From Mariniflexile maritimum (lineage in GTDB: Bacteria > Bacteroidota > Bacteroidia > Flavobacteriales > Flavobacteriaceae): a DNA stretch of 62,835 nucleotides. A model generated the notes under the pieces. It searched no databases. It was not told where the DNA came from and saw nothing but the letters and a program-made list of their open reading frames with translations. Of the stretch, positions 55,876 through 62,835 are shown in pieces. Within the stretch, counting starts at the first letter, position 1, and every line of letters begins with the position of its first letter. The stretch spans positions 1 to 62,835 of the forward strand of contig NZ_WRPN01000015.1 in assembly GCF_009746565.1 (NCBI RefSeq), in the 5' to 3' direction. Position numbers and translations under genes: made by a program.

Positions 55876-56022
55876 TTATAATTTAGGTTATCAATTTTAA
55901 TAGGAGTTGCAACAAAGAGTTGGGAAGTTTGTGGCTATTGTTATATCCCAGGTTAAATCAGATTAGGAACAATTGTTCCTGATCCGGATTCATTTGAATC
56001 CAAATGAATCCAATAAAAATAA
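55876..56022. other. Non-coding spacer with two adjacent perfect palindromes
   Basis: AGGAACAATTGTTCCT (55965-55980) is a perfect 16-bp palindrome. Five bases on, GGATTCATTTG (55986-55996) pairs with CAAATGAATCC (56001-56011) around AATC. No gene is found between kbl and 56597 (about 775 bases); the other items there are listed separately. Confidence 0.6.
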
Positions 56023-56056
56023 AAAACACTGATAATCATACGATTAACAGTGTTTT
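56023..56056 (-). terminator. Terminator next to the tRNA remnant
   Basis: AAAACACTG-A-TAATC (56023-56037) pairs with GATTA-A-CAGTGTTTT (56042-56056) with one mismatch and a 4-base loop. On the minus strand it is followed by TTTTTATTTTTATT. No intact minus-strand gene ends before it, but a tRNA 3' remnant lies 24 bases upstream, so it probably once terminated that tRNA. Confidence 0.7.
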
Positions 56057-56079
56057 GATACTTCCTATTTCTAGGTTCG

Positions 56080-56092
56080 TCGGGGTGGCAGG
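56080..56092 (-). other. tRNA 3'-end remnant (Pro-like), possible attachment site
   Basis: The minus strand reads CCTGC-CACCCCG-A: the 3' half of a T-stem, a full 3' acceptor strand and discriminator A, as in tRNA-Pro genes starting CGGGGTG. The T-loop and everything before it are missing; the sequence changes to unrelated DNA at 56093. A terminator follows at 56056-56023. This is what remains at one end when an element integrates into the 3' end of a tRNA gene. The match is only 13 bases, so chance is possible. Confidence 0.45.
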
Positions 56093-56480
56093 CAGAACTC
56101 CCCTAACATATATTTTTAATATTCAAATAGTTACATATTAATTTACTCCTTGGTAACCGAATAGGTAACTTATTTGATAAGACCTTTTGTTCTATTTTGA
56201 TACTAAGATAAGCCTTTTATAAAAGAAAAACTATTTTTAATAAAAATATGATGAATAGATAGAGTGGAGAGTTGAACAATCTTGAGTTTATAAAAGTGAG
56301 CATAACAAAATTACCACTAAACCTTTTATAAGTAAGGTCATGACATATTTTTAAGTGGTATAATAATTTCTGTTTTTCAAATCTAAGCACATTTCTAGGG
56401 TGAAATCGTTATGACAGAACTAACTTTTATGTTTTAAATAACTGTTTTACAGTATTTTACGTGTTTTTACTCAAAAGATT

Positions 56481-56540
56481 CACCGAATAGTACACTAAAG
56501 TCAAAAAGAGCTAAATAAAAGCAAACTGTATTTGTTTTTA
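56481..56540. repeat. Diverged direct repeat, left copy
   Basis: The sequence starting CACCGAATAGTACACTAAAG (56481) recurs, with substitutions, at 56999-57056 (CACCGAATTGCACACCAAAA). Both go on with TCAAAAAGAnCTAA and end in a stretch like TTTGTTTTT. The copies are about 520 bases apart and flank the LuxR-type gene. The stretch 56093-56480 is AT-rich and shows nothing else. Confidence 0.6.
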
Positions 56541-56596
56541 TTTTATAAATATATAATTTTTATTTTAAATAATAACTCTAATAAAAAGTTTTAGGA

Positions 56597-56827
56597 TCAG
56601 TCGAAAAGTTCAACCTCTTCTAAAATTTTCAGTTTTACAGCCTTGGAAACCATATAGTGAGAATTATATCCTAAGGGGACGTTCAATTTCTTTTTAATTC
56701 TTGCGACATAAGTTGAAACGGTTTTTTCGTTTAAACCTAATTCTTTAGATATGGTTTTGTTTTTATACCCTTTTTGAATAAGTTTCAAAACAGCAAGTTC
56801 TCGTTTAGATAGTTTTTTTATTTCCAT
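56597..56827 (-). CDS. Stand-alone LuxR-type (GerE) helix-turn-helix protein
   Basis: 76 residues from the ATG at 56827; the frame is open 3 codons further to a TTG. Nearly the whole protein is the GerE DNA-binding domain: LSKRELAVLKLIQKGYKNKTISKELGLNEKTVSTYVARIKKKLNV, with the usual Glu, Gly and recognition-helix pattern. No receiver or ligand domain is present. It is the last gene of the island reading with transcription, about 300 bases behind the unknown 308-residue protein, and may regulate the island. It could also be the surviving end of a longer regulator. Confidence 0.75.
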   Translation of the reverse strand: MEIKKLSKRELAVLKLIQKGYKNKTISKELGLNEKTVSTYVARIKKKLNVPLGYNSHYMVSKAVKLKILEEVELFD

Positions 56828-56998
56828 TTCAAACAACTTTTTTTATAATTTTTAGATTTCCAAAATTTAGAGCTTGCGCAATTTCTTTTCTATTATTATT
56901 TACCATCGGACTACAATTTAATTGGGATGGCAGAATGAAATTGAATTTCATAAACCACTGTATTTTAACGATTTAAGCATTGCTATTCAAGTATAACA

Positions 56999-57056
56999 CA
57001 CCGAATTGCACACCAAAATCAAAAAGAACTAATTAAAACAAAATTTAATTGTTTTT
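56999..57056. repeat. Diverged direct repeat, right copy
   Basis: Partner of 56481-56540. It lies between the 308-residue protein gene and the LuxR-type gene, where the promoter of the latter should be. Confidence 0.6.
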
Positions 57057-57127
57057 GGTTACATAAAGGTACATATTTCATTAAAACAAATGAAATTTTA
57101 TCGACATAAGGATAAATATTGTTCAAA

Positions 57128-58054
57128 TTATTTAATGCTATTTTCAAAAACAATTTCTGATATAATAAAAGTATTCTCATCAATTGGCTCTCTAGTATAT
57201 TCATTAATATCGGATCCAGAACCAACTCTCCAAATGTCAATATCTCTAAATTTTATTGTCATTAACATTGAAATAAATGTAAATGGTTTTGGACCTAATG
57301 GAGCGATTATTATACTGTATTCCTCTCTAAGTAAATAATATAGTGATGTTAATTCACGCTCAAGAGATAACATATCATCTAATTGAAATGTTATTATCTT
57401 TTTTTTATCTGTTCTATCTAAAAGAGTTGAATTATTTTCCTCTATTTTTTTTACAAATTTATAATCTAATGCTGGTTTGGAATAAATTATATAATATTCT
57501 TTAGGATCTAAATGTTCAATGATACCTTCAGCCTTTCTTTGCTCATATCCAAGACAAACTATTAATGCCTTTGGTTTATCTGTTGGAACAATATATTTAC
57601 CTGGTAAAGGAGCAATTTCTGTATTTGGTTTTGGTTCTAAGGGTTTAGTGAATTTTGATGGAGTATAAATAAAATATACTGTAATAGAATTAAAATCTAA
57701 TTCTTTCTTTCTTAAATATAAAATAATAGTATAATACCATGACTTTGTCATGCAAGAATAATCAACTATAATACATAAATCCTTCTTTGAGTCAACACCT
57801 AGTTCTTGATCTAATATGGTAGATATTTCTTGATGATTTTGTAGTTTTATTTTTTCAATGCTACTATGGTCATGTTTCACCTTATATGAATCTTTATAAA
57901 CAAATAAAATTGATTTAGAGATAGTATTATTTTTAATAATTTTATCATAAGCTGTGAATACTCTTTTTTCATGATTTCCTGCAAATAGAAATAGTGATAT
58001 CTCTTTTTCAGAAATACTATTTATATCAATTTGTTTACCATATTTTATAACCAT
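57128..58054 (-). CDS. Unknown protein with a doubled G-x-E-x-R motif, partner of the AAA ATPase
   Basis: 308 residues; I do not recognise the family. No signal peptide or membrane helix is seen. Two similar segments occur: ISLFLFAGNHEKRVFTAYDKI (motif GNHEKR, residues 26-31) and ALIVCLGYEQRKAEGIIEHL (motif GYEQRK, 169-174). In each a hydrophobic strand runs into G-x-x-E-x-R or G-x-E-x-R and then a helix. After the first, LCIIVDYSCMTKSWYYTIILYL (about 93-114) looks like a strand-Asp-Tyr-Ser-loop-helix unit. I infer two Rossmann-like halves from an internal duplication. It starts 11 bases behind the ATPase gene and is the last gene of the operon, so it is probably the sensor or effector of the system. 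Confidence 0.7.
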   Translation of the reverse strand: MVIKYGKQIDINSISEKEISLFLFAGNHEKRVFTAYDKIIKNNTISKSILFVYKDSYKVKHDHSSIEKIKLQNHQEISTILDQELGVDSKKDLCIIVDYSCMTKSWYYTIILYLRKKELDFNSITVYFIYTPSKFTKPLEPKPNTEIAPLPGKYIVPTDKPKALIVCLGYEQRKAEGIIEHLDPKEYYIIYSKPALDYKFVKKIEENNSTLLDRTDKKKIITFQLDDMLSLERELTSLYYLLREEYSIIIAPLGPKPFTFISMLMTIKFRDIDIWRVGSGSDINEYTREPIDENTFIISEIVFENSIK

Positions 58055-58065
58055 TTCTCTTAATT

Positions 58066-59841
58066 CTAGTTAAATAATGATATTTGACCTGCATCATCTA
58101 ATAAAGTTAAACATTCGCTAAGCTTAGTTTTATTATAAACTCTTAAAGGGATGTTATACAAAATACAAAATATATAAGATAGCTTAAATCTTTTATTTCT
58201 AATTTCGAAATCAAAAGAATCATCATTAGAGTCTAATAAAATAAATGCGCCTTGAGCAACACCTTTCTCAATAAGTTCTACGATATTATCATGGATCTTA
58301 TCATCTGAATTATCAACTAAAAAAGTGCTTTTTGGATCCATCAAAAAATTCTCTCCTAATATCTGATTTTCAAAGTACTTACCCACTCTTTCAATAATAT
58401 CAATTATTGTAAAATTGCAATCTCCTACAGGAATATTGGCAATAACATTTTTATATCTTTTTGACACATTCAATAATTCATCAAACTGTTGTTTTTTATC
58501 AATATTGCCACCATTTGATTTAGAAATAATTGCACTAACAATTCCAATCAACCATCTTGGGTTACCATCACAGATTTTTGAAATCACCTCAATACCAGAA
58601 AAAAGATCTGTAGCTTTTTTTCTACTTCTATATTTAACTTTTTTTCTAACAATGTTTTCTTCGATGAAAAAATTCCTAAAATAAACTATTGGCTTGATCT
58701 TTCTATATAATACATCTTTTTGATTGTCATTAATTGGTATTGGATTTGCTATATCAACATCTTTATTTTCAAGAAAAGATTTAAAAGATTCATCTTTATT
58801 AATTAAACTGATCATTTCCTTATAAAAATCACTCCCTTCACTATAACTATCAGAAGTTTTATTATAAATATCATTAGAGCCAAATACTTTAACTAGATTT
58901 GAATTACTTGGAAGAAAAGACTTAATTATTTTTTTTGAGAATTCTTCATTATCTTTCGATATCCACATTTTTATGAGTTCGACATCATTTCCAGGAGTAG
59001 CTCCATAATCAGACAATAATGACTTTTCCAAAGCAGAAGGTAATATTGGACTAGCACTCAATTTATATAATAAGTATTGAGTTCTACTTCTAAGTGAAAT
59101 AAACAGTTTCTGTTGCAGCCATATGGGTGCAAATTCTAATTCATCAAAACATAGAGCCCACTTCTTTTTTTCTTCTATTCCATAAATACGTTCAAATTTG
59201 GGAATAATTAATTCTAGTGATGTTTCGAAGGACAAATTATAGTAGTCAGGTACGTCTATTTTATCACCAGGAGCATAATTAAAAATCACTTGTTGAATAA
59301 ATTGATTTACACTGTCTATTCTATCATTAAGTGCTTCTTTGACATATTTTAGTTTAGGAATAGTATTTGATAATTTCCATGCTTTAATTAAATGACTACA
59401 TAGTTCAATTTCCTTTTTCTCATCTTTATTTTTTAATTCAATATTTATAATATTTAAAAATGAATCACAAAGAGATGTAAAAACATTACTACTAACGGCA
59501 AAATGTGAAACCATATCAGCAAAGGTTCCATAGGCTTCTAATTGACTACCGTATGTTAAGTTTTTCACATTCCAGTATATATCTGTAGATATATAAATTC
59601 CATAAAAGGGGATATTATTTCTAATATCTTCAGCTTTACTATCTGAATTCCATGCATGTAAGGCAGGAATTGTTAACATTTTCATTAGAGTAGTTTTACC
59701 ACAACCACGAGCTCCTAAAATAATAGAATGATTATTCTTTACTAGCTTGTCAAAGCTTTCTGACCAAATAAATCTTTCAGCCACTTCTTTAGGTGCTAAA
59801 TGTCTGGCATTATAACTTATAAGAAAATTATTAGTTTCCAT
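58066..59841 (-). CDS. AAA/STAND-type ATPase, ORC/Cdc6-like
   Basis: 591 residues. Walker A is GARGCGKTTLMK (residues 43-54) after a short N-terminal FIWSESFDKLV, as in ORC/Cdc6-like P-loop proteins. Walker B is WALCFDELEFAP (about 229-240), and ICDGNPRWLIGIVSAI (about 424) resembles the sensor 2/GxPR region that starts the winged-helix part. The C-terminal ~150 residues have no clear domain. It overlaps the phosphoesterase gene by 11 bases, so the two are translationally coupled. In defence systems such ATPases sense or couple to an effector; here this is inference. Confidence 0.82.
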   Translation of the reverse strand: METNNFLISYNARHLAPKEVAERFIWSESFDKLVKNNHSIILGARGCGKTTLMKMLTIPALHAWNSDSKAEDIRNNIPFYGIYISTDIYWNVKNLTYGSQLEAYGTFADMVSHFAVSSNVFTSLCDSFLNIINIELKNKDEKKEIELCSHLIKAWKLSNTIPKLKYVKEALNDRIDSVNQFIQQVIFNYAPGDKIDVPDYYNLSFETSLELIIPKFERIYGIEEKKKWALCFDELEFAPIWLQQKLFISLRSRTQYLLYKLSASPILPSALEKSLLSDYGATPGNDVELIKMWISKDNEEFSKKIIKSFLPSNSNLVKVFGSNDIYNKTSDSYSEGSDFYKEMISLINKDESFKSFLENKDVDIANPIPINDNQKDVLYRKIKPIVYFRNFFIEENIVRKKVKYRSRKKATDLFSGIEVISKICDGNPRWLIGIVSAIISKSNGGNIDKKQQFDELLNVSKRYKNVIANIPVGDCNFTIIDIIERVGKYFENQILGENFLMDPKSTFLVDNSDDKIHDNIVELIEKGVAQGAFILLDSNDDSFDFEIRNKRFKLSYIFCILYNIPLRVYNKTKLSECLTLLDDAGQISLFN

Positions 59842-61018
59842 CTATGGCTTTTGTATTACTTATTATTTCTGGAATTTGAGAAAGCTTTCCAGAAAGTATT
59901 AACCCCTCATCTTTCAATTTCAACTCTATATGTTTTGCTTCATTTGGTGTTAGATATTCAATATCCGGAATGGCTTTAACTACATCTGACCAATTTTTAA
60001 CGGTCTCATTTCCAACTTCAGCTATAATTTTATCGACCACATCTTGCAAAATTCCATCAAATCCAAACCCCGTATATGAATCAAAACCCTCATCATCATT
60101 TACTATTTTCCAACCATTTTTTGGTATAAAAGTCCATGTGGTTATTCTTCCTTTTGATGGTTTTCCCTTAGTTTTAACTAAGTCTATCTTATGAAATGTA
60201 TTTCTTCGACTAGTCCAGCCTAAATTTGAGATAGCTGAAAAACTACCTGATGACAGTATTGGTATTTTTGTTCCAGATGAATGAAAATTATGGTATCTCA
60301 ATAATGGATCATGTTTATGTCCGTGTATAAACAAATCAAAATTATATTTACCTAAAACCTCCAAAAGTGCATCTCCATTGATAATTTTATCCTCTTCTCC
60401 TAATTTAAAACGAGAATGATCTATCGGATGATGATGTGCAAGTGCTATATTTATTTTATCATCATTATGTTTTACCAAATATTCATCTATGTAGTCTATT
60501 AGGTCCTCACCTACTTTACCACCTCCTGAAGCCTTCTTATTGTGATGATAATGAGAGCTGTTAATTACAAGAATTCTATAATCATCAGCTTCAATAAATA
60601 CACACCCTTTTGACCAAAACTTATCACAGTCGTCATCGTCTTTTAAAGGAAACCCTTTTTTAATACCTTTTGCAATTTCCAAACTATAATTTGAAAATGT
60701 TTCATATGAATCAACATCATGATTTCCTAAAGTAGCTATAACTTCTTTGCCTTCTAATTCTTTATTGATTTCTAGAGTGAAATCCCAACCAGAAATAAAA
60801 CCTTGTGCATCTGTTTTGTTCGTGAAATCTCCAGGACACAAAGTAAGATCAACTTTTATTTTCTCTTTTTTTATAATCTTTAAGATACTTTCTACTGGAT
60901 GATTGTTTGGATCAGTTCTTAGCATATTAGAAGTTAAATATGTATCCTTAGAACTAGATTCACTGTAATGACAATGCATATCACTAATTATTGCAATACT
61001 TAATTTTTTTGAACTCAT
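59831..61018 (-). CDS. Calcineurin-like metallophosphoesterase
   Basis: 395 residues with all five metal-binding blocks: DMH (residues 13-15), GD (63-64), GNHD (98-101), HHH (195-197) and GHKH (233-236). The order and spacing match class III cyclic-nucleotide phosphodiesterases (CpdA-like) better than SbcD/Mre11. About 130 residues follow the catalytic domain, containing KNWSDVVKAIPDIEYLTPNEAKHIELKLKDEG, and may bind a partner. It starts 1 base after the methyltransferase stop and overlaps the ATPase gene. It could be a nuclease or a nucleotide-signal phosphodiesterase. Confidence 0.88.
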   Translation of the reverse strand: MSSKKLSIAIISDMHCHYSESSSKDTYLTSNMLRTDPNNHPVESILKIIKKEKIKVDLTLCPGDFTNKTDAQGFISGWDFTLEINKELEGKEVIATLGNHDVDSYETFSNYSLEIAKGIKKGFPLKDDDDCDKFWSKGCVFIEADDYRILVINSSHYHHNKKASGGGKVGEDLIDYIDEYLVKHNDDKINIALAHHHPIDHSRFKLGEEDKIINGDALLEVLGKYNFDLFIHGHKHDPLLRYHNFHSSGTKIPILSSGSFSAISNLGWTSRRNTFHKIDLVKTKGKPSKGRITTWTFIPKNGWKIVNDDEGFDSYTGFGFDGILQDVVDKIIAEVGNETVKNWSDVVKAIPDIEYLTPNEAKHIELKLKDEGLILSGKLSQIPEIISNTKAIDGN

Positions 61019-61019
61019 A

Positions 61020-61859
61020 TTAAATTGTATTGCATATAATTAATTCATTATACATCCCTCTAGTCTTGTTACGACCTCCTACTTGGCTATATCTTGATTT
61101 AATAAATATTTTTCCCATTCCTTTATACAAATCAAGTATAGAATGATGGCTCGCATTTGTTAAAATAAAATATGCTCCCTTATTATTTATGGCTTGAATA
61201 AAATCCCTTAATCTTTCTTGGTCATCCCAGGAAAATAATTTTTGGTTATATTCAATAAACCCATTATTCTCATGTGCTATCGTATATGGTGGGTCTAAAA
61301 AAACCAAATCATCTTTTTTGATATTTTCTAAAGTTTCTTTAAAATCTATAGCTTTAATGGTAACATTTTGTAATGCTTTACTAACTAATCTTAAATTATC
61401 TTCAGAAACTATATCTACATTTTTTCTTTTACCATAAGGCACATTATATATTCCTTTACTATTAACTCTATAAATACCATTAAAAGAACATTTATTCAAA
61501 TAAATAAACTTTGCTGCTTTTGTATGAGATTTATTAGTTCTAGCCTTTCTAATTCTATAGAATTCTTCTTCTGTATTTTTTAATAGCTTGAGAGTTTTAA
61601 TTAATAGTTCAACGTTATCTCTTATTTCTATATATGTCTCAATTAAATCATTGTTAATATCATACAGATATGCTTCTCCATTTTTATCAATAGAAAAAAA
61701 TACAGATCCGCCTCCTAAAAAGCATTCATGATAATTGTTAAAGTTGTTAGGGAGATATTTTGTAAGTCCGTCTTTTATAAGCCAGTTTTTAGATCCAGTC
61801 CATCTCAAAAAAGGCTTACATTTGGCTTTATATAAAATAGGTGTATTAATTTCTTTCAT
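61020..61859 (-). CDS. D12-class (Dam-type) adenine-specific DNA methyltransferase
   Basis: 279 residues, normal for the family. The AdoMet motif is in KPFLRWTGSKNWLIKDGLTKYLP (residues 15-37) with HECFLGGGSVFFSI (44-57), and the catalytic motif is LVFLDPPY (about 190). The order motif I, target domain, motif IV is that of Dam/DpnM-type enzymes. No restriction endonuclease gene is adjacent. It is the first gene of the four-gene operon and may mark host DNA as self; regulation of the others or simple hitch-hiking are alternatives. Confidence 0.9.
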   Translation of the reverse strand: MKEINTPILYKAKCKPFLRWTGSKNWLIKDGLTKYLPNNFNNYHECFLGGGSVFFSIDKNGEAYLYDINNDLIETYIEIRDNVELLIKTLKLLKNTEEEFYRIRKARTNKSHTKAAKFIYLNKCSFNGIYRVNSKGIYNVPYGKRKNVDIVSEDNLRLVSKALQNVTIKAIDFKETLENIKKDDLVFLDPPYTIAHENNGFIEYNQKLFSWDDQERLRDFIQAINNKGAYFILTNASHHSILDLYKGMGKIFIKSRYSQVGGRNKTRGMYNELIICNTI

Positions 61860-61991: not shown

Positions 61992-62540
61992 TTATAAATT
62001 TTCTTCTGCTTCAATTAAATTTAAAAGTAAAACATCTGTCAAATTAGCACCAATTTGAACTAAAATTCTATTTCGTTCATATTGTAATTCTCCTAGATCT
62101 ATTTTTCTTCCATGGAACAAGTTATCTCTTATTTGTTTAATAATAGAGAATAAAGCTTTGAAATTAGTAGCGTTCCAATTCTCTGCGTGTACAATTTCTT
62201 CTTGATTATCTTCAATCTCTTCTTTTTCAAATAATTCAGATCGATATTTTAAAAAATAAGTGGCTCTAAGAATGTTTAGTGTTGGTTCAAAATTATTATT
62301 TGAAGCACCAACAGGCCTCATAATAGCTAATTCTTTTGCAATATTTTTAATTTCATTCATCTGCCAATAAAAATCACCATGATTATTGCAAAATAGTTGC
62401 GCACCATTATTTCTTCCAAATTTTCTTTTCCAATAAGATTCTAACCATTCATAGTTTTCATGAAATCTTCTTCTTATTTCTTTATTTTCTAAATCTTGAT
62501 TTAATCTCTCGATAAAATCTCTTATTTCATATGAAACCAT
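61992..62540 (-). CDS. Small protein with a HEPN-type R-x4-H motif
   Basis: 182 residues, mostly helical by eye, with no signal peptide. The C-terminal part reads FKALFSIIKQIRDNLFHGRKIDL; R138-DNLF-H143 is the R-x4-H motif of HEPN RNases, and NLFHG is the form often seen in Apea-like HEPN proteins. The N-terminal half (FHENYEWLESYWKRKFGRNNGAQLF) is not recognised. HEPN proteins of defence islands often cut RNA on activation. It lies 132 bases upstream of the methyltransferase and may be a separate unit. Confidence 0.65.
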   Translation of the reverse strand: MVSYEIRDFIERLNQDLENKEIRRRFHENYEWLESYWKRKFGRNNGAQLFCNNHGDFYWQMNEIKNIAKELAIMRPVGASNNNFEPTLNILRATYFLKYRSELFEKEEIEDNQEEIVHAENWNATNFKALFSIIKQIRDNLFHGRKIDLGELQYERNRILVQIGANLTDVLLLNLIEAEENL

Positions 62541-62713
62541 AGTAACTGCTTTAATTCTATGTAAAAGTAAACATTTTCATTCCACACATATTACGCTTCC
62601 CTTCTACGTCATCGCATAAAAAATATTCCAATAACATTGTACAAGAAACTTTTAAGAATAAATTTTTTCAAGAACCTGTAGTTACTAATTTCACTTTTAA
62701 CCAAAGTTCAATT

Positions 62714-62835
62714 TGTAAGCTTCCCCAAAATTCGGCCATTTAAAAATAGAATTCGACAAGCGACGCAGGAGCGCGTTCAGTAAGAATTATTAAATTTAAA
62801 TCCGAAAACTTATGAAGACAACCCATTTTACAGAA
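62714..62835 (+). mobile_element. Left end of an IS3-like insertion sequence (partial, runs off the right edge)
   Basis: An ATG at 62812 opens a frame to the edge coding MKTTHFTE, which closely resembles the start of IS3-family OrfA proteins (M-K-x-x-x-F-T-E-x-Q-I-V). Upstream, TGTAAGCTTCCCCAAAATTC (from 62714) could be the terminal inverted repeat, since IS3-type ends often begin with TG. Only 8 codons are visible, so the call is tentative. Between 62541 and 62713 I see no gene. Confidence 0.4.

What the first reader, a model, noticed from the sequence alone, without database searches (positions are those of the whole stretch)
57128..61859. Candidate undescribed four-gene system: Dam-type methyltransferase, metallophosphoesterase, ORC/Cdc6-like ATPase, doubled-motif protein
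Seen: four minus-strand genes with spacings of 1, -11 and 11 bases and their own -7 element (TATATTTG), next to a probable integration site and an IS. Established: D12 methyltransferases, calcineurin-like phosphoesterases and STAND/ORC ATPases each occur in antiviral systems, and self-marking methylation is used by restriction and BREX/DISARM-type systems. Inference: the methylase marks host DNA, the ATPase and the 308-residue protein sense, and the phosphoesterase cuts nucleic acid or a nucleotide signal. I do not match this gene set to a named defence system I know.
Basis: partly seen in the sequence, partly recalled or inferred. Interest (0 to 1): 0.88.

Follow-up and report, generated by a model that had tools for sequence, protein, structure and literature searches.

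The report
Mobile four-gene immune cassette, replication-clamp linked
Four adjacent bacterial genes form a mobile, probably virus-fighting cassette found in distant bacteria, and the tail of its ATPase looks like the peptide that docks proteins onto the ring-shaped clamp of the DNA-copying machine, which would be a new way to spot invading DNA.

Summary
The four genes are real: D12 adenine methyltransferase, metallophosphoesterase (MPE) with a C-terminal winged helix, ORC/CDC6-like ATPase, and a 308-aa tandem-CARF protein (family CARF6). They form a conserved cassette: of 19 CARF6 loci examined outside the sister type, window included, 15 have all four in this order and 17 have MPE-ORC-CARF6, in Bacteroidota genomes and Pseudomonadota plasmids. 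A sister operon has a PRTase-CE phosphoribosyltransferase in place of the MPE (4 of 4 opened). The parts already have names (Pfam PF24389, PF24390, PF24408; PADLOC CARF6), so this is a member of a computationally recognised, apparently untested kind.

New here: the ATPase ends in a disordered tail with Q..[LI]F in 102 of 118 full-length relatives (shuffle mean 1.7). It resembles the beta sliding-clamp peptide, and a Y-family polymerase of the same genome has a clamp-like peptide at its C-terminus. Only 26 of 118 tails fit the strict revised consensus, so the match is imperfect.

Best reading: methylation marks self; the clamp-tethered ATPase senses foreign replicating DNA; the nucleotide-acting enzyme (MPE or PRTase) is the effector; CARF6 senses a nucleotide. 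The cassette layout is shown; defence, clamp binding and the signal are inferred.

The parts
61020..61859 (-). D12-class N6-adenine DNA methyltransferase (MT), 279 aa; DPPY motif at 61284-61295
   Evidence: PF02086 5.8e-48; TIGR00571 dam 1.2e-66; nearest solved structure 2dpm, DpnII methyltransferase 1, 3.2e-49; DPPY invariant in 13 of 13 aligned
59831..61018 (-). Calcineurin-like metallophosphoesterase (MPE), 395 aa
   Evidence: PF00149 1.8e-13; NF053862 DS9_1_antiphage 3e-14 but far below its cut-off; D13, H15, D64, N99, H100, H195, H234, H236 invariant in 13 of 13
59912..60070 (-). C-terminal winged helix of the MPE (PF24408 wHTH-Calcineurin_assc)
   Evidence: 2.3e-10; coordinates
58066..59841 (-). 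ORC/CDC6-like P-loop ATPase, 591 aa
58072..58086 (-). QISLF, candidate beta-clamp-binding peptide in the disordered C-terminal tail of the ATPase (residues 586-590)
   Evidence: residues 582-591 pLDDT < 50; Q..[LI]F in 102 of 118 relatives
57128..58054 (-). Tandem-CARF protein of family CARF6, 308 aa
56999..57091 (.). Repeat B, copy next to the 3' end of the operon
   Evidence: recurs in same-genus genomes
56481..56573 (.). Repeat B, second copy (71% identical)
62579..62714 (.). Repeat C on the 5' side; one copy seen in one same-genus genome
   Evidence: 82% identity over 136 bases to L126

Best explanation
A mobile innate-immunity cassette against invading replicating DNA. Shown: the four-gene unit, the intact active-site motifs, the tandem-CARF fold, the PRTase in place of the MPE in a sister operon, and the conserved QxxLF tail. 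Inferred: (1) the methyltransferase marks host DNA as self; (2) the ORC/CDC6-like ATPase docks through its C-terminal QxxLF peptide on the DnaN sliding clamp, so that it patrols newly copied DNA, and switches state when it meets DNA without the mark or an abnormal replication fork; (3) it then activates the slot-2 enzyme, which alters a nucleotide pool or a nucleotide messenger and stops infection; here that is the MPE, in the sister system a phosphoribosyltransferase; (4) CARF6 binds a nucleotide ligand, which gates or resets the response.
For: Cassette: 15 of 19 loci complete and 17 of 19 with MPE-ORC-CARF6; pairwise-identity matrices of the four proteins correlate at 0.80-0.98 over the 15 complete loci, 0.77-0.90 over the 10 close ones; PF24408 occurs in 3 of 390 genomes and CARF6 in 3 of 395, the same three; the ATPase also matches the AAA part of a PADLOC CARF6 fusion model, PDLC01925, 5.9e-8. 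Setting: plasmids, resolvase, serine recombinase, AbiE, TIR, Type II and Type IV restriction enzymes. Clamp tail: 102 of 118 ATPases carry Q..[LI]F in the last 25 aa, shuffle mean 1.7, max 6 of 500; 50 of 58 representatives at 70% identity with Q..[LIM]F; CARF6 tails 0 of 120; among 405 neighbouring ORFs only 1 protein that is not such an ATPase has Q..[LIM]F in its last 8 residues; tail disordered in the model; PRTase-type ATPases 29 of 109, shuffle mean 0.8; one Y-family polymerase of the window genome ends in QLKFEF, those of two cassette-bearing relatives in QLKLF and QLQLFD. Consensus from passages of PMC9690074 and PMC13254535. Effector slot: metallophosphatase domains of DS-8 (fused to a NACHT ATPase) and DS-9 are needed for phage defence (passages of PMC13092281); the PRTase matches PADLOC PRTase_III-A at 1.6e-31, and PRTases are called type III retron effectors in PMC12548924 (passages). 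Sensor: tandem CARF fold.
Against: No phage-challenge or biochemical data. Only 26 of 118 MPE-type and 9 of 109 PRTase-type tails fit the revised pentapeptide with an aliphatic residue at position 2 (consensus), so the tail may dock on another protein. 16 of 118 lack Q..[LI]F, as do 4 of 7 plasmid ATPases read. The same short pattern also occurs 1.56 times per protein outside the tail. Of 20 Y-family polymerase ORFs read, only 9 show a QL-type motif near the C-terminus, and only 1 of 3 in the window genome was read. Neighbours were picked by hand, so no enrichment for defence genes is shown. Two of 17 core loci lack an adjacent co-directed D12 methyltransferase (L047, L105). No cyclase was recognised in the operon and 10 of 12 host genomes had no SMODS match, so the CARF ligand is unknown. 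Nothing here shows that methylation state is sensed.
Confidence: 0.58

Rival explanations
1. A restriction-modification-like system: the methyltransferase protects host sites, the winged-helix MPE is an Mre11/SbcD-like DNA nuclease, the ATPase translocates or loads it, and CARF6 is a regulator.
For: MT plus a winged helix on the MPE; SbcD/Mre11 chains are three of the five PDB profile matches; restriction enzymes beside L047 and L105.
Against: Lmo2642 (1.4e-8) and a nucleotidase (2e-5) score better than SbcD/Mre11 (2.3e-3 to 3.3e-3); the same slot holds a phosphoribosyltransferase in the sister system, an enzyme class not known to cut DNA (recalled); two core loci lack an adjacent co-directed MT.
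Confidence: 0.2
2. The conserved QxxLF tail is an intrasystem docking peptide (for the MPE/PRTase or CARF6), not a clamp-binding motif; the cassette is still a defence system.
For: Position 2 is often T, K or G; revised consensus met in only 26 of 118. 13 of the 16 relatives without the full motif still have LF in the last 12 residues.
Against: The tail also occurs as Q..[LI]F or Q..LP in PRTase-type ATPases that have another slot-2 partner, and resembles tails of Y-family polymerases in the same genomes.
Confidence: 0.3
3. A CBASS/type III-like signalling system: CARF6 senses a cyclic oligonucleotide made elsewhere, and the MPE is a messenger phosphodiesterase that switches the response off.
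Against: No cyclase recognised in the operon; SMODS over cut-off in 2 of 12 host genomes and Csm1 over cut-off in 0 of 12; other cyclase families not searched. PRTase replaces the MPE in the sister operon.
Confidence: 0.25
4. A plasmid or element maintenance / replication-control module rather than immunity.
For: ORC-like ATPase with a clamp-like tail, plasmid and integrative-element settings.
Against: Also in non-plasmid contigs of many Bacteroidota genera; defence-type neighbours in several loci; CARF and MPE domains of this type are linked to defence.
Confidence: 0.08

Closest known systems
PRTase-CE / ORC-CDC6-like operons (Pfam PF24390 + PF24389; here L049, L107, L108, L109)
   Same: Same four-slot layout: DNA methyltransferase, slot-2 enzyme, ORC-CDC6-like ATPase, CARF6-family protein
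   Different: Slot 2 is a phosphoribosyltransferase and the methyltransferase is of N6/N4 type, not D12
Predicted conflict systems behind the Pfam names wHTH-Calcineurin_assc and PRTase-CE (recalled: Burroughs and Aravind 2020; paper not held)
   Same: The window has PF24389 and PF24408
   Different: I could not read whether the four-gene set, the CARF protein or the tail was described
DS-8 and DS-9 (DefensePredictor, PMC13092281; passages seen)
   Same: Metallophosphatase domain essential for phage defence; DS-8 pairs it with a NACHT P-loop ATPase; the window MPE matches NF053862 (DS9_1) at 3e-14
   Different: No methyltransferase or CARF in the passages seen; in DS-8 the ATPase is fused; NF053862 cut-off (420 bits) not reached (52.7)
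CARF/SAVED effectors of type III CRISPR and CBASS (Can1, Csm6, Cap5; name Can1 for 6sce recalled)
   Same: CARF fold, in tandem as in 6sce
   Different: CARF6 here is a stand-alone protein and no cyclase was recognised in the operon
BREX
   Same: Methyltransferase plus ORC/Cdc6-type ATPases (BrxB, BrxC, BrxD; passages of PMC12839542)
   Different: No BREX family among the hits of the four proteins
Hda (DnaA-like protein that works with the clamp)
   Same: DnaA-like protein that contacts the clamp (passages of PMC9690074)
   Different: Hda is a replication regulator; its clamp peptide is recalled as N-terminal

Membership tests
ORC-CDC6-like ATPase (PF24389) | Full-length profile match above the curated cut-off | tested here: met
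   356 bits against 27, profile 1-571 of 571
CARF6 (PADLOC) | Profile match | tested here: met
   PDLC01915 5.9e-107 over 1-305
CARF domain superfamily | CARF (Rossmann-like) fold | tested here: met
CARF domain superfamily | Binding of a cyclic oligonucleotide | not testable with these tools
   no ligand assay
wHTH-calcineurin MPE (PF00149 + PF24408) | Both domains above cut-off in one protein | tested here: met
   51.8 and 40.6 bits
DS-9A anti-phage phosphoesterase (NF053862) | Score above 420 bits | tested here: not met
   52.7 bits, domain-level relative only
Dam-family methyltransferase (TIGR00571) | Score above cut-off | tested here: met
   225 bits against 114.85
Dam-family methyltransferase (TIGR00571) | GATC specificity | not testable with these tools
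   needs methylation calling
BREX | PglZ and PglX present (recalled as core) | tested here: not met
   no such hit for any of the four proteins
CBASS / type III CRISPR signalling | Cyclase encoded with the sensor | tested here: not met
   no cyclase family among the hits of the four proteins; SMODS in 2 of 12 and Csm1 above cut-off in 0 of 12 host genomes
Prophage replication module | Relatives in phage genomes | tested here: not met
   ATPase: none in 50,697 phage records at 1e-5; CARF6: none in viral contigs, prefiltered by two exact peptide patterns
Beta-clamp-binding proteins | Terminal peptide Q-x-x-[LM]-[FL] | tested here: met
   window QISLF; 97 of 118 MPE-type and 37 of 109 PRTase-type ATPases; disordered tail
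Beta-clamp-binding proteins | Aliphatic residue at position 2 (revised consensus, PMC13254535) | tested here: inconclusive
   window QISLF fits; only 26 of 118 relatives fit
Beta-clamp-binding proteins | Physical binding to DnaN | not testable with these tools
   no complex prediction or assay available

The most novel reading that the evidence does not exclude
First immune system gated by the replication sliding clamp: an ORC/CDC6-type ATPase rides on DnaN, checks freshly copied DNA for the cassette's own methyl mark, and fires an interchangeable nucleotide-acting effector (metallophosphoesterase or phosphoribosyltransferase) whose product or substrate is read by a cyclase-independent tandem CARF sensor.
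Probability: 0.3. Interest if true: 0.88.

Novelty: new member of a known kind. Interest (0 to 1): 0.64.

Why it matters
How innate systems tell invading DNA from host DNA without a guide is a long-standing question. A defence ATPase tethered to the sliding clamp would tie recognition to replication itself and would explain why an origin-recognition-type ATPase is paired with a DNA methyltransferase. It also adds a CARF sensor that may work without a cyclase, pointing to an unknown nucleotide signal, and shows one chassis with two alternative nucleotide-acting enzymes. The clamp idea can be tested with one peptide and one point mutant.

Tried and rejected
Prophage module: rejected. New kind of protein for the 308-aa ORF: rejected, it is CARF6 with a CARF fold. 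Mre11/SbcD-type nuclease as first choice for the MPE: not favoured, kept as rival. ORF182 (61992-62540) as a fifth gene: rejected; as a BLAST query it had no hit among the ORFs of the relatives' loci. Flanking repeats as a known RNA element: no Rfam match up to E = 1. Repeats as a dense integron array: not pursued; hits in one relative are many kb apart, and that search scored only 9 candidates per genome. PRTase-CE as a marker of the sister system: too broad; over cut-off in 19 of 390 genomes, and of 16 such loci read only G164 had ORC and CARF beside it. PF24389 as a marker of the cassette: also broad; over cut-off in 25 of 395 genomes, but near full length only in the window, G138, G312 and G164; three weaker ones (L050-L052) were read and only P-loop-level BLAST hits to the window's proteins were found there. 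Single-sequence scan of genome contigs for CARF6: no hit; repeated with an alignment. Literature: Makarova 2020 and Burroughs and Aravind 2020, which may describe parts of this, are not held. Searches listed no paper that I recognised as describing this gene set or a clamp motif in such an ATPase; they cover open-licence papers only, several lists were capped, and I saw listings and passages, so absence from print is not claimed.
Full report
OBSERVATION. Domain scans give: D12 methyltransferase (PF02086 5.8e-48), metallophosphoesterase with a C-terminal winged helix (PF00149 1.8e-13; PF24408 2.3e-10), ORC-CDC6-like ATPase (PF24389 4.8e-106), and no Pfam family for the 308-aa protein. PADLOC assigns that last protein to CARF6 (5.9e-107). 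Catalytic positions are kept: DPPY in 13 of 13 methyltransferases, the metal-site residues in 13 of 13 phosphoesterases, Walker A and B positions in 14 of 14 ATPases.

A CONSERVED CASSETTE. A scan of species-representative genomes with a CARF6 alignment returned 12 loci; 10 of 12 carry MT-MPE-ORC-CARF6 in this order, one (L044) a truncated CARF6, one (L046) a distant solo CARF6. One of the 10 (L043) has a methyltransferase 36% identical to the window's while its other three proteins are 46-50%. In a sample of 395 genomes of the phylum CARF6 occurs in 3, the window's own included; the other two (L047, L048) both have MPE-ORC-CARF6, L048 with a D12 MT in place, L047 with a D12 MT on the other strand next to a Type II restriction enzyme. 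PF24408 occurs in 3 of 390 genomes, the same three. The ATPase family itself is wider: over cut-off in 25 of 395 genomes, near full length in 4, namely these three and G164. The ATPase also hits five plasmid records; four were opened. Cupriavidus pinatubonensis p2, a Methylobacterium plasmid and S. meliloti pSmeSM11b have all four genes; Pseudoalteromonas has MPE-ORC-CARF6 preceded by a 614-aa ORF without Pfam family and an HNH protein, and its nearest methyltransferase, two genes further up, is of a general class and not a D12 enzyme. With the window this is 19 CARF6 loci outside the sister type: 15 complete, 17 with the three-gene core. Pairwise identities of the four proteins over the 15 complete loci correlate at r 0.80-0.98, over the 10 close ones at 0.77-0.90, as expected of genes that travel together; this does not correct for shared ancestry. 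The window's ATPase also matches the AAA part of a PADLOC CARF6 fusion model (PDLC01925, 5.9e-8).

SETTING. Hand-picked neighbours include AbiE genes, a TIR protein, a resolvase and a serine recombinase, and Type II and Type IV restriction enzymes; this is not an enrichment test. In the window, repeat B lies twice on the 3' side of the operon. Relatives of B were seen in 8 of 16 same-genus stretches, which had been picked because an earlier search hit there; of repeat C on the 5' side one copy was seen. In 6 of 6 relatives fetched, kbl is followed by a 1043-1084-aa ORF that begins with the same IYNASAGSGKT-type stretch, scanned only in L158 (UvrD helicase), then a 202-216-aa ORF, and not by this operon. 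The contig ends at 62835, so the insertion cannot be delimited. No relatives in phage records (ATPase) or viral contigs (CARF6).

A SISTER SYSTEM. G164 (L049) has an N6/N4 methyltransferase, PRTase-CE (PF24390 7.4e-62), an ORC-CDC6-like ATPase (5.1e-114) and a 308-aa protein that PADLOC also places in CARF6 (PDLC01914 9.2e-101). Three of the ten plasmid records that match its ATPase were opened and all three have the same layout. So slots 1, 3 and 4 are conserved in kind while slot 2 is MPE or PRTase. Both slot-2 kinds have links to defence: metallophosphatase domains are required for protection in DS-8, where one is fused to a NACHT ATPase, and in DS-9 (passages of PMC13092281), and the window's MPE matches the DS9_1 model at domain level, 52.7 bits against a cut-off of 420. 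PRTases are called effectors of type III retrons in PMC12548924 (passages), and L049's matches PADLOC PRTase_III-A at 1.6e-31. A phosphoribosyltransferase is not expected to cut DNA, so the common denominator is action on nucleotides; this is inference.

THE ATPASE TAIL. The aligned ATPases share little at the C-terminus except a last Q and hydrophobic residues. Among 120 listed homologs (of 286 found), 118 are at least 580 aa (two shorter ones were dropped); 102 of 118 carry Q..[LI]F within the last 25 residues, 96 of them Q..LF; with a slightly wider pattern 86 of 103 end 0-1 residues before the C-terminus; shuffled tails give 1.7 on average, at most 6 in 500 rounds. The same short pattern also occurs 1.56 times per protein outside the tail. 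Thinning to 70% identity leaves 50 of 58, to 60% 15 of 20, to 50% 4 of 6 ([LIM]F). CARF6 tails: 0 of 120. In a background of 405 ORFs from fetched loci, 15 of them such ATPases, the only other protein with Q..[LIM]F in its last 8 residues is L038 308-1261, and this one is an ABC-3C conflict-system protein (CTD10); in the homolog set it is 97 of 118. PRTase-type ATPases (114 found, 109 long enough): 29 of 109, shuffle mean 0.8, max 5; 54 of 109 with a broader pattern chosen after seeing the tails. Plasmid ATPases: 3 of 7 have Q..[LI]F (L103, L106, L107), others QGKLPF, QLRIDGL, QLYVKDLF or no Q. The tail is disordered in the model (582-591, pLDDT < 50). Published consensus: QL(S/D)LF, at the C-terminus (PMC9690074 passage), revised to Q-aliphatic-x-[L/M]-[F/L] (PMC13254535 passage). 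The window's QISLF fits the revised form, but only 26 of 118 and 9 of 109 do, because position 2 is often T, K, G or M. As a positive control, Y-family polymerase ORFs of cassette-bearing genomes were read: 9 of 20 have a QL-type motif near the C-terminus, such as QLKFEF in the window genome (one of its three), QLKLF in L138 and QLQLFD in L140. I rate clamp docking as more likely than not, and an intrasystem docking peptide as the main alternative. SocB, a toxin that binds the clamp through the usual motif, is precedent for clamp targeting by a toxin-antitoxin system (PMC9690074 passage).

MECHANISM. Shown: unit, folds (predicted), intact motifs, PRTase/MPE alternation, tail conservation. Inferred: self-marking by methylation, ATPase at the clamp as detector, MPE as nucleotide-acting effector, CARF6 as nucleotide sensor. 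The methyltransferase is the least strict part (not beside the core in L105, on the other strand in L047, diverged in L043), which speaks for recognition that is not solely methylation-based.

NOVELTY. Domain families for this system exist in Pfam and PADLOC, and NCBI names relatives of the ATPase 'ORC-CDC6 family AAA ATPase'. From memory, Burroughs and Aravind (2020) predicted calcineurin- and PRTase-centred conflict systems, and Makarova et al. (2020) defined CARF6; neither paper was held.

Noticed in passing
L038 308-1261: A 317-aa ABC-3C conflict-system protein (PF20275 CTD10) in the neighbourhood also ends in QITLF: clamp-type tails may occur in further conflict systems.
   Followed up: partly
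window 61992-62540: 182-aa ORF directly upstream of the operon, no convincing family in four libraries; carries RDNLFHG, which resembles the R-N-x-x-x-H motif of HEPN ribonucleases (motif recalled). L047 7993-8631, upstream of its MPE, carries VRNQIIH.
   Followed up: partly
window 55990-57091 and 62579-62714: Repeat families A and B (3' side) recur repeatedly in same-genus genomes, in places A next to B; repeat C (5' side) was seen once; possible recombination or integration sequences.
   Followed up: partly
window 56597-56836: 79-aa LuxR-type helix-turn-helix ORF sitting between the two copies of repeat B (PF00196 7.2e-17).
   Followed up: no
L107 5715-6626 and L108 10581-11534: The PRTase-type operon lies beside thyX in two rhizobial plasmids (same strand in L107, opposite in L108; Thy1 confirmed), suggesting a link to thymidine or base-modification metabolism.
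   Followed up: partly
L040 10986-11858: A second, stand-alone calcineurin-like phosphoesterase directly follows the operon in Pedobacter sp. V48.
   Followed up: no
L104 12463-15935: A CHAT-domain protein (with a weak TPR-S match) and another calcineurin-like phosphoesterase lie next to the operon on a Methylobacterium plasmid; they may be a separate conflict system.
   Followed up: partly
L037 4528-6106 and L038 4527-6102: A pair of unknown genes (311 and 215-216 aa; no Pfam or PADLOC hit for the L038 pair) directly upstream of the operon in Mucilaginibacter and Pedobacter.
   Followed up: no
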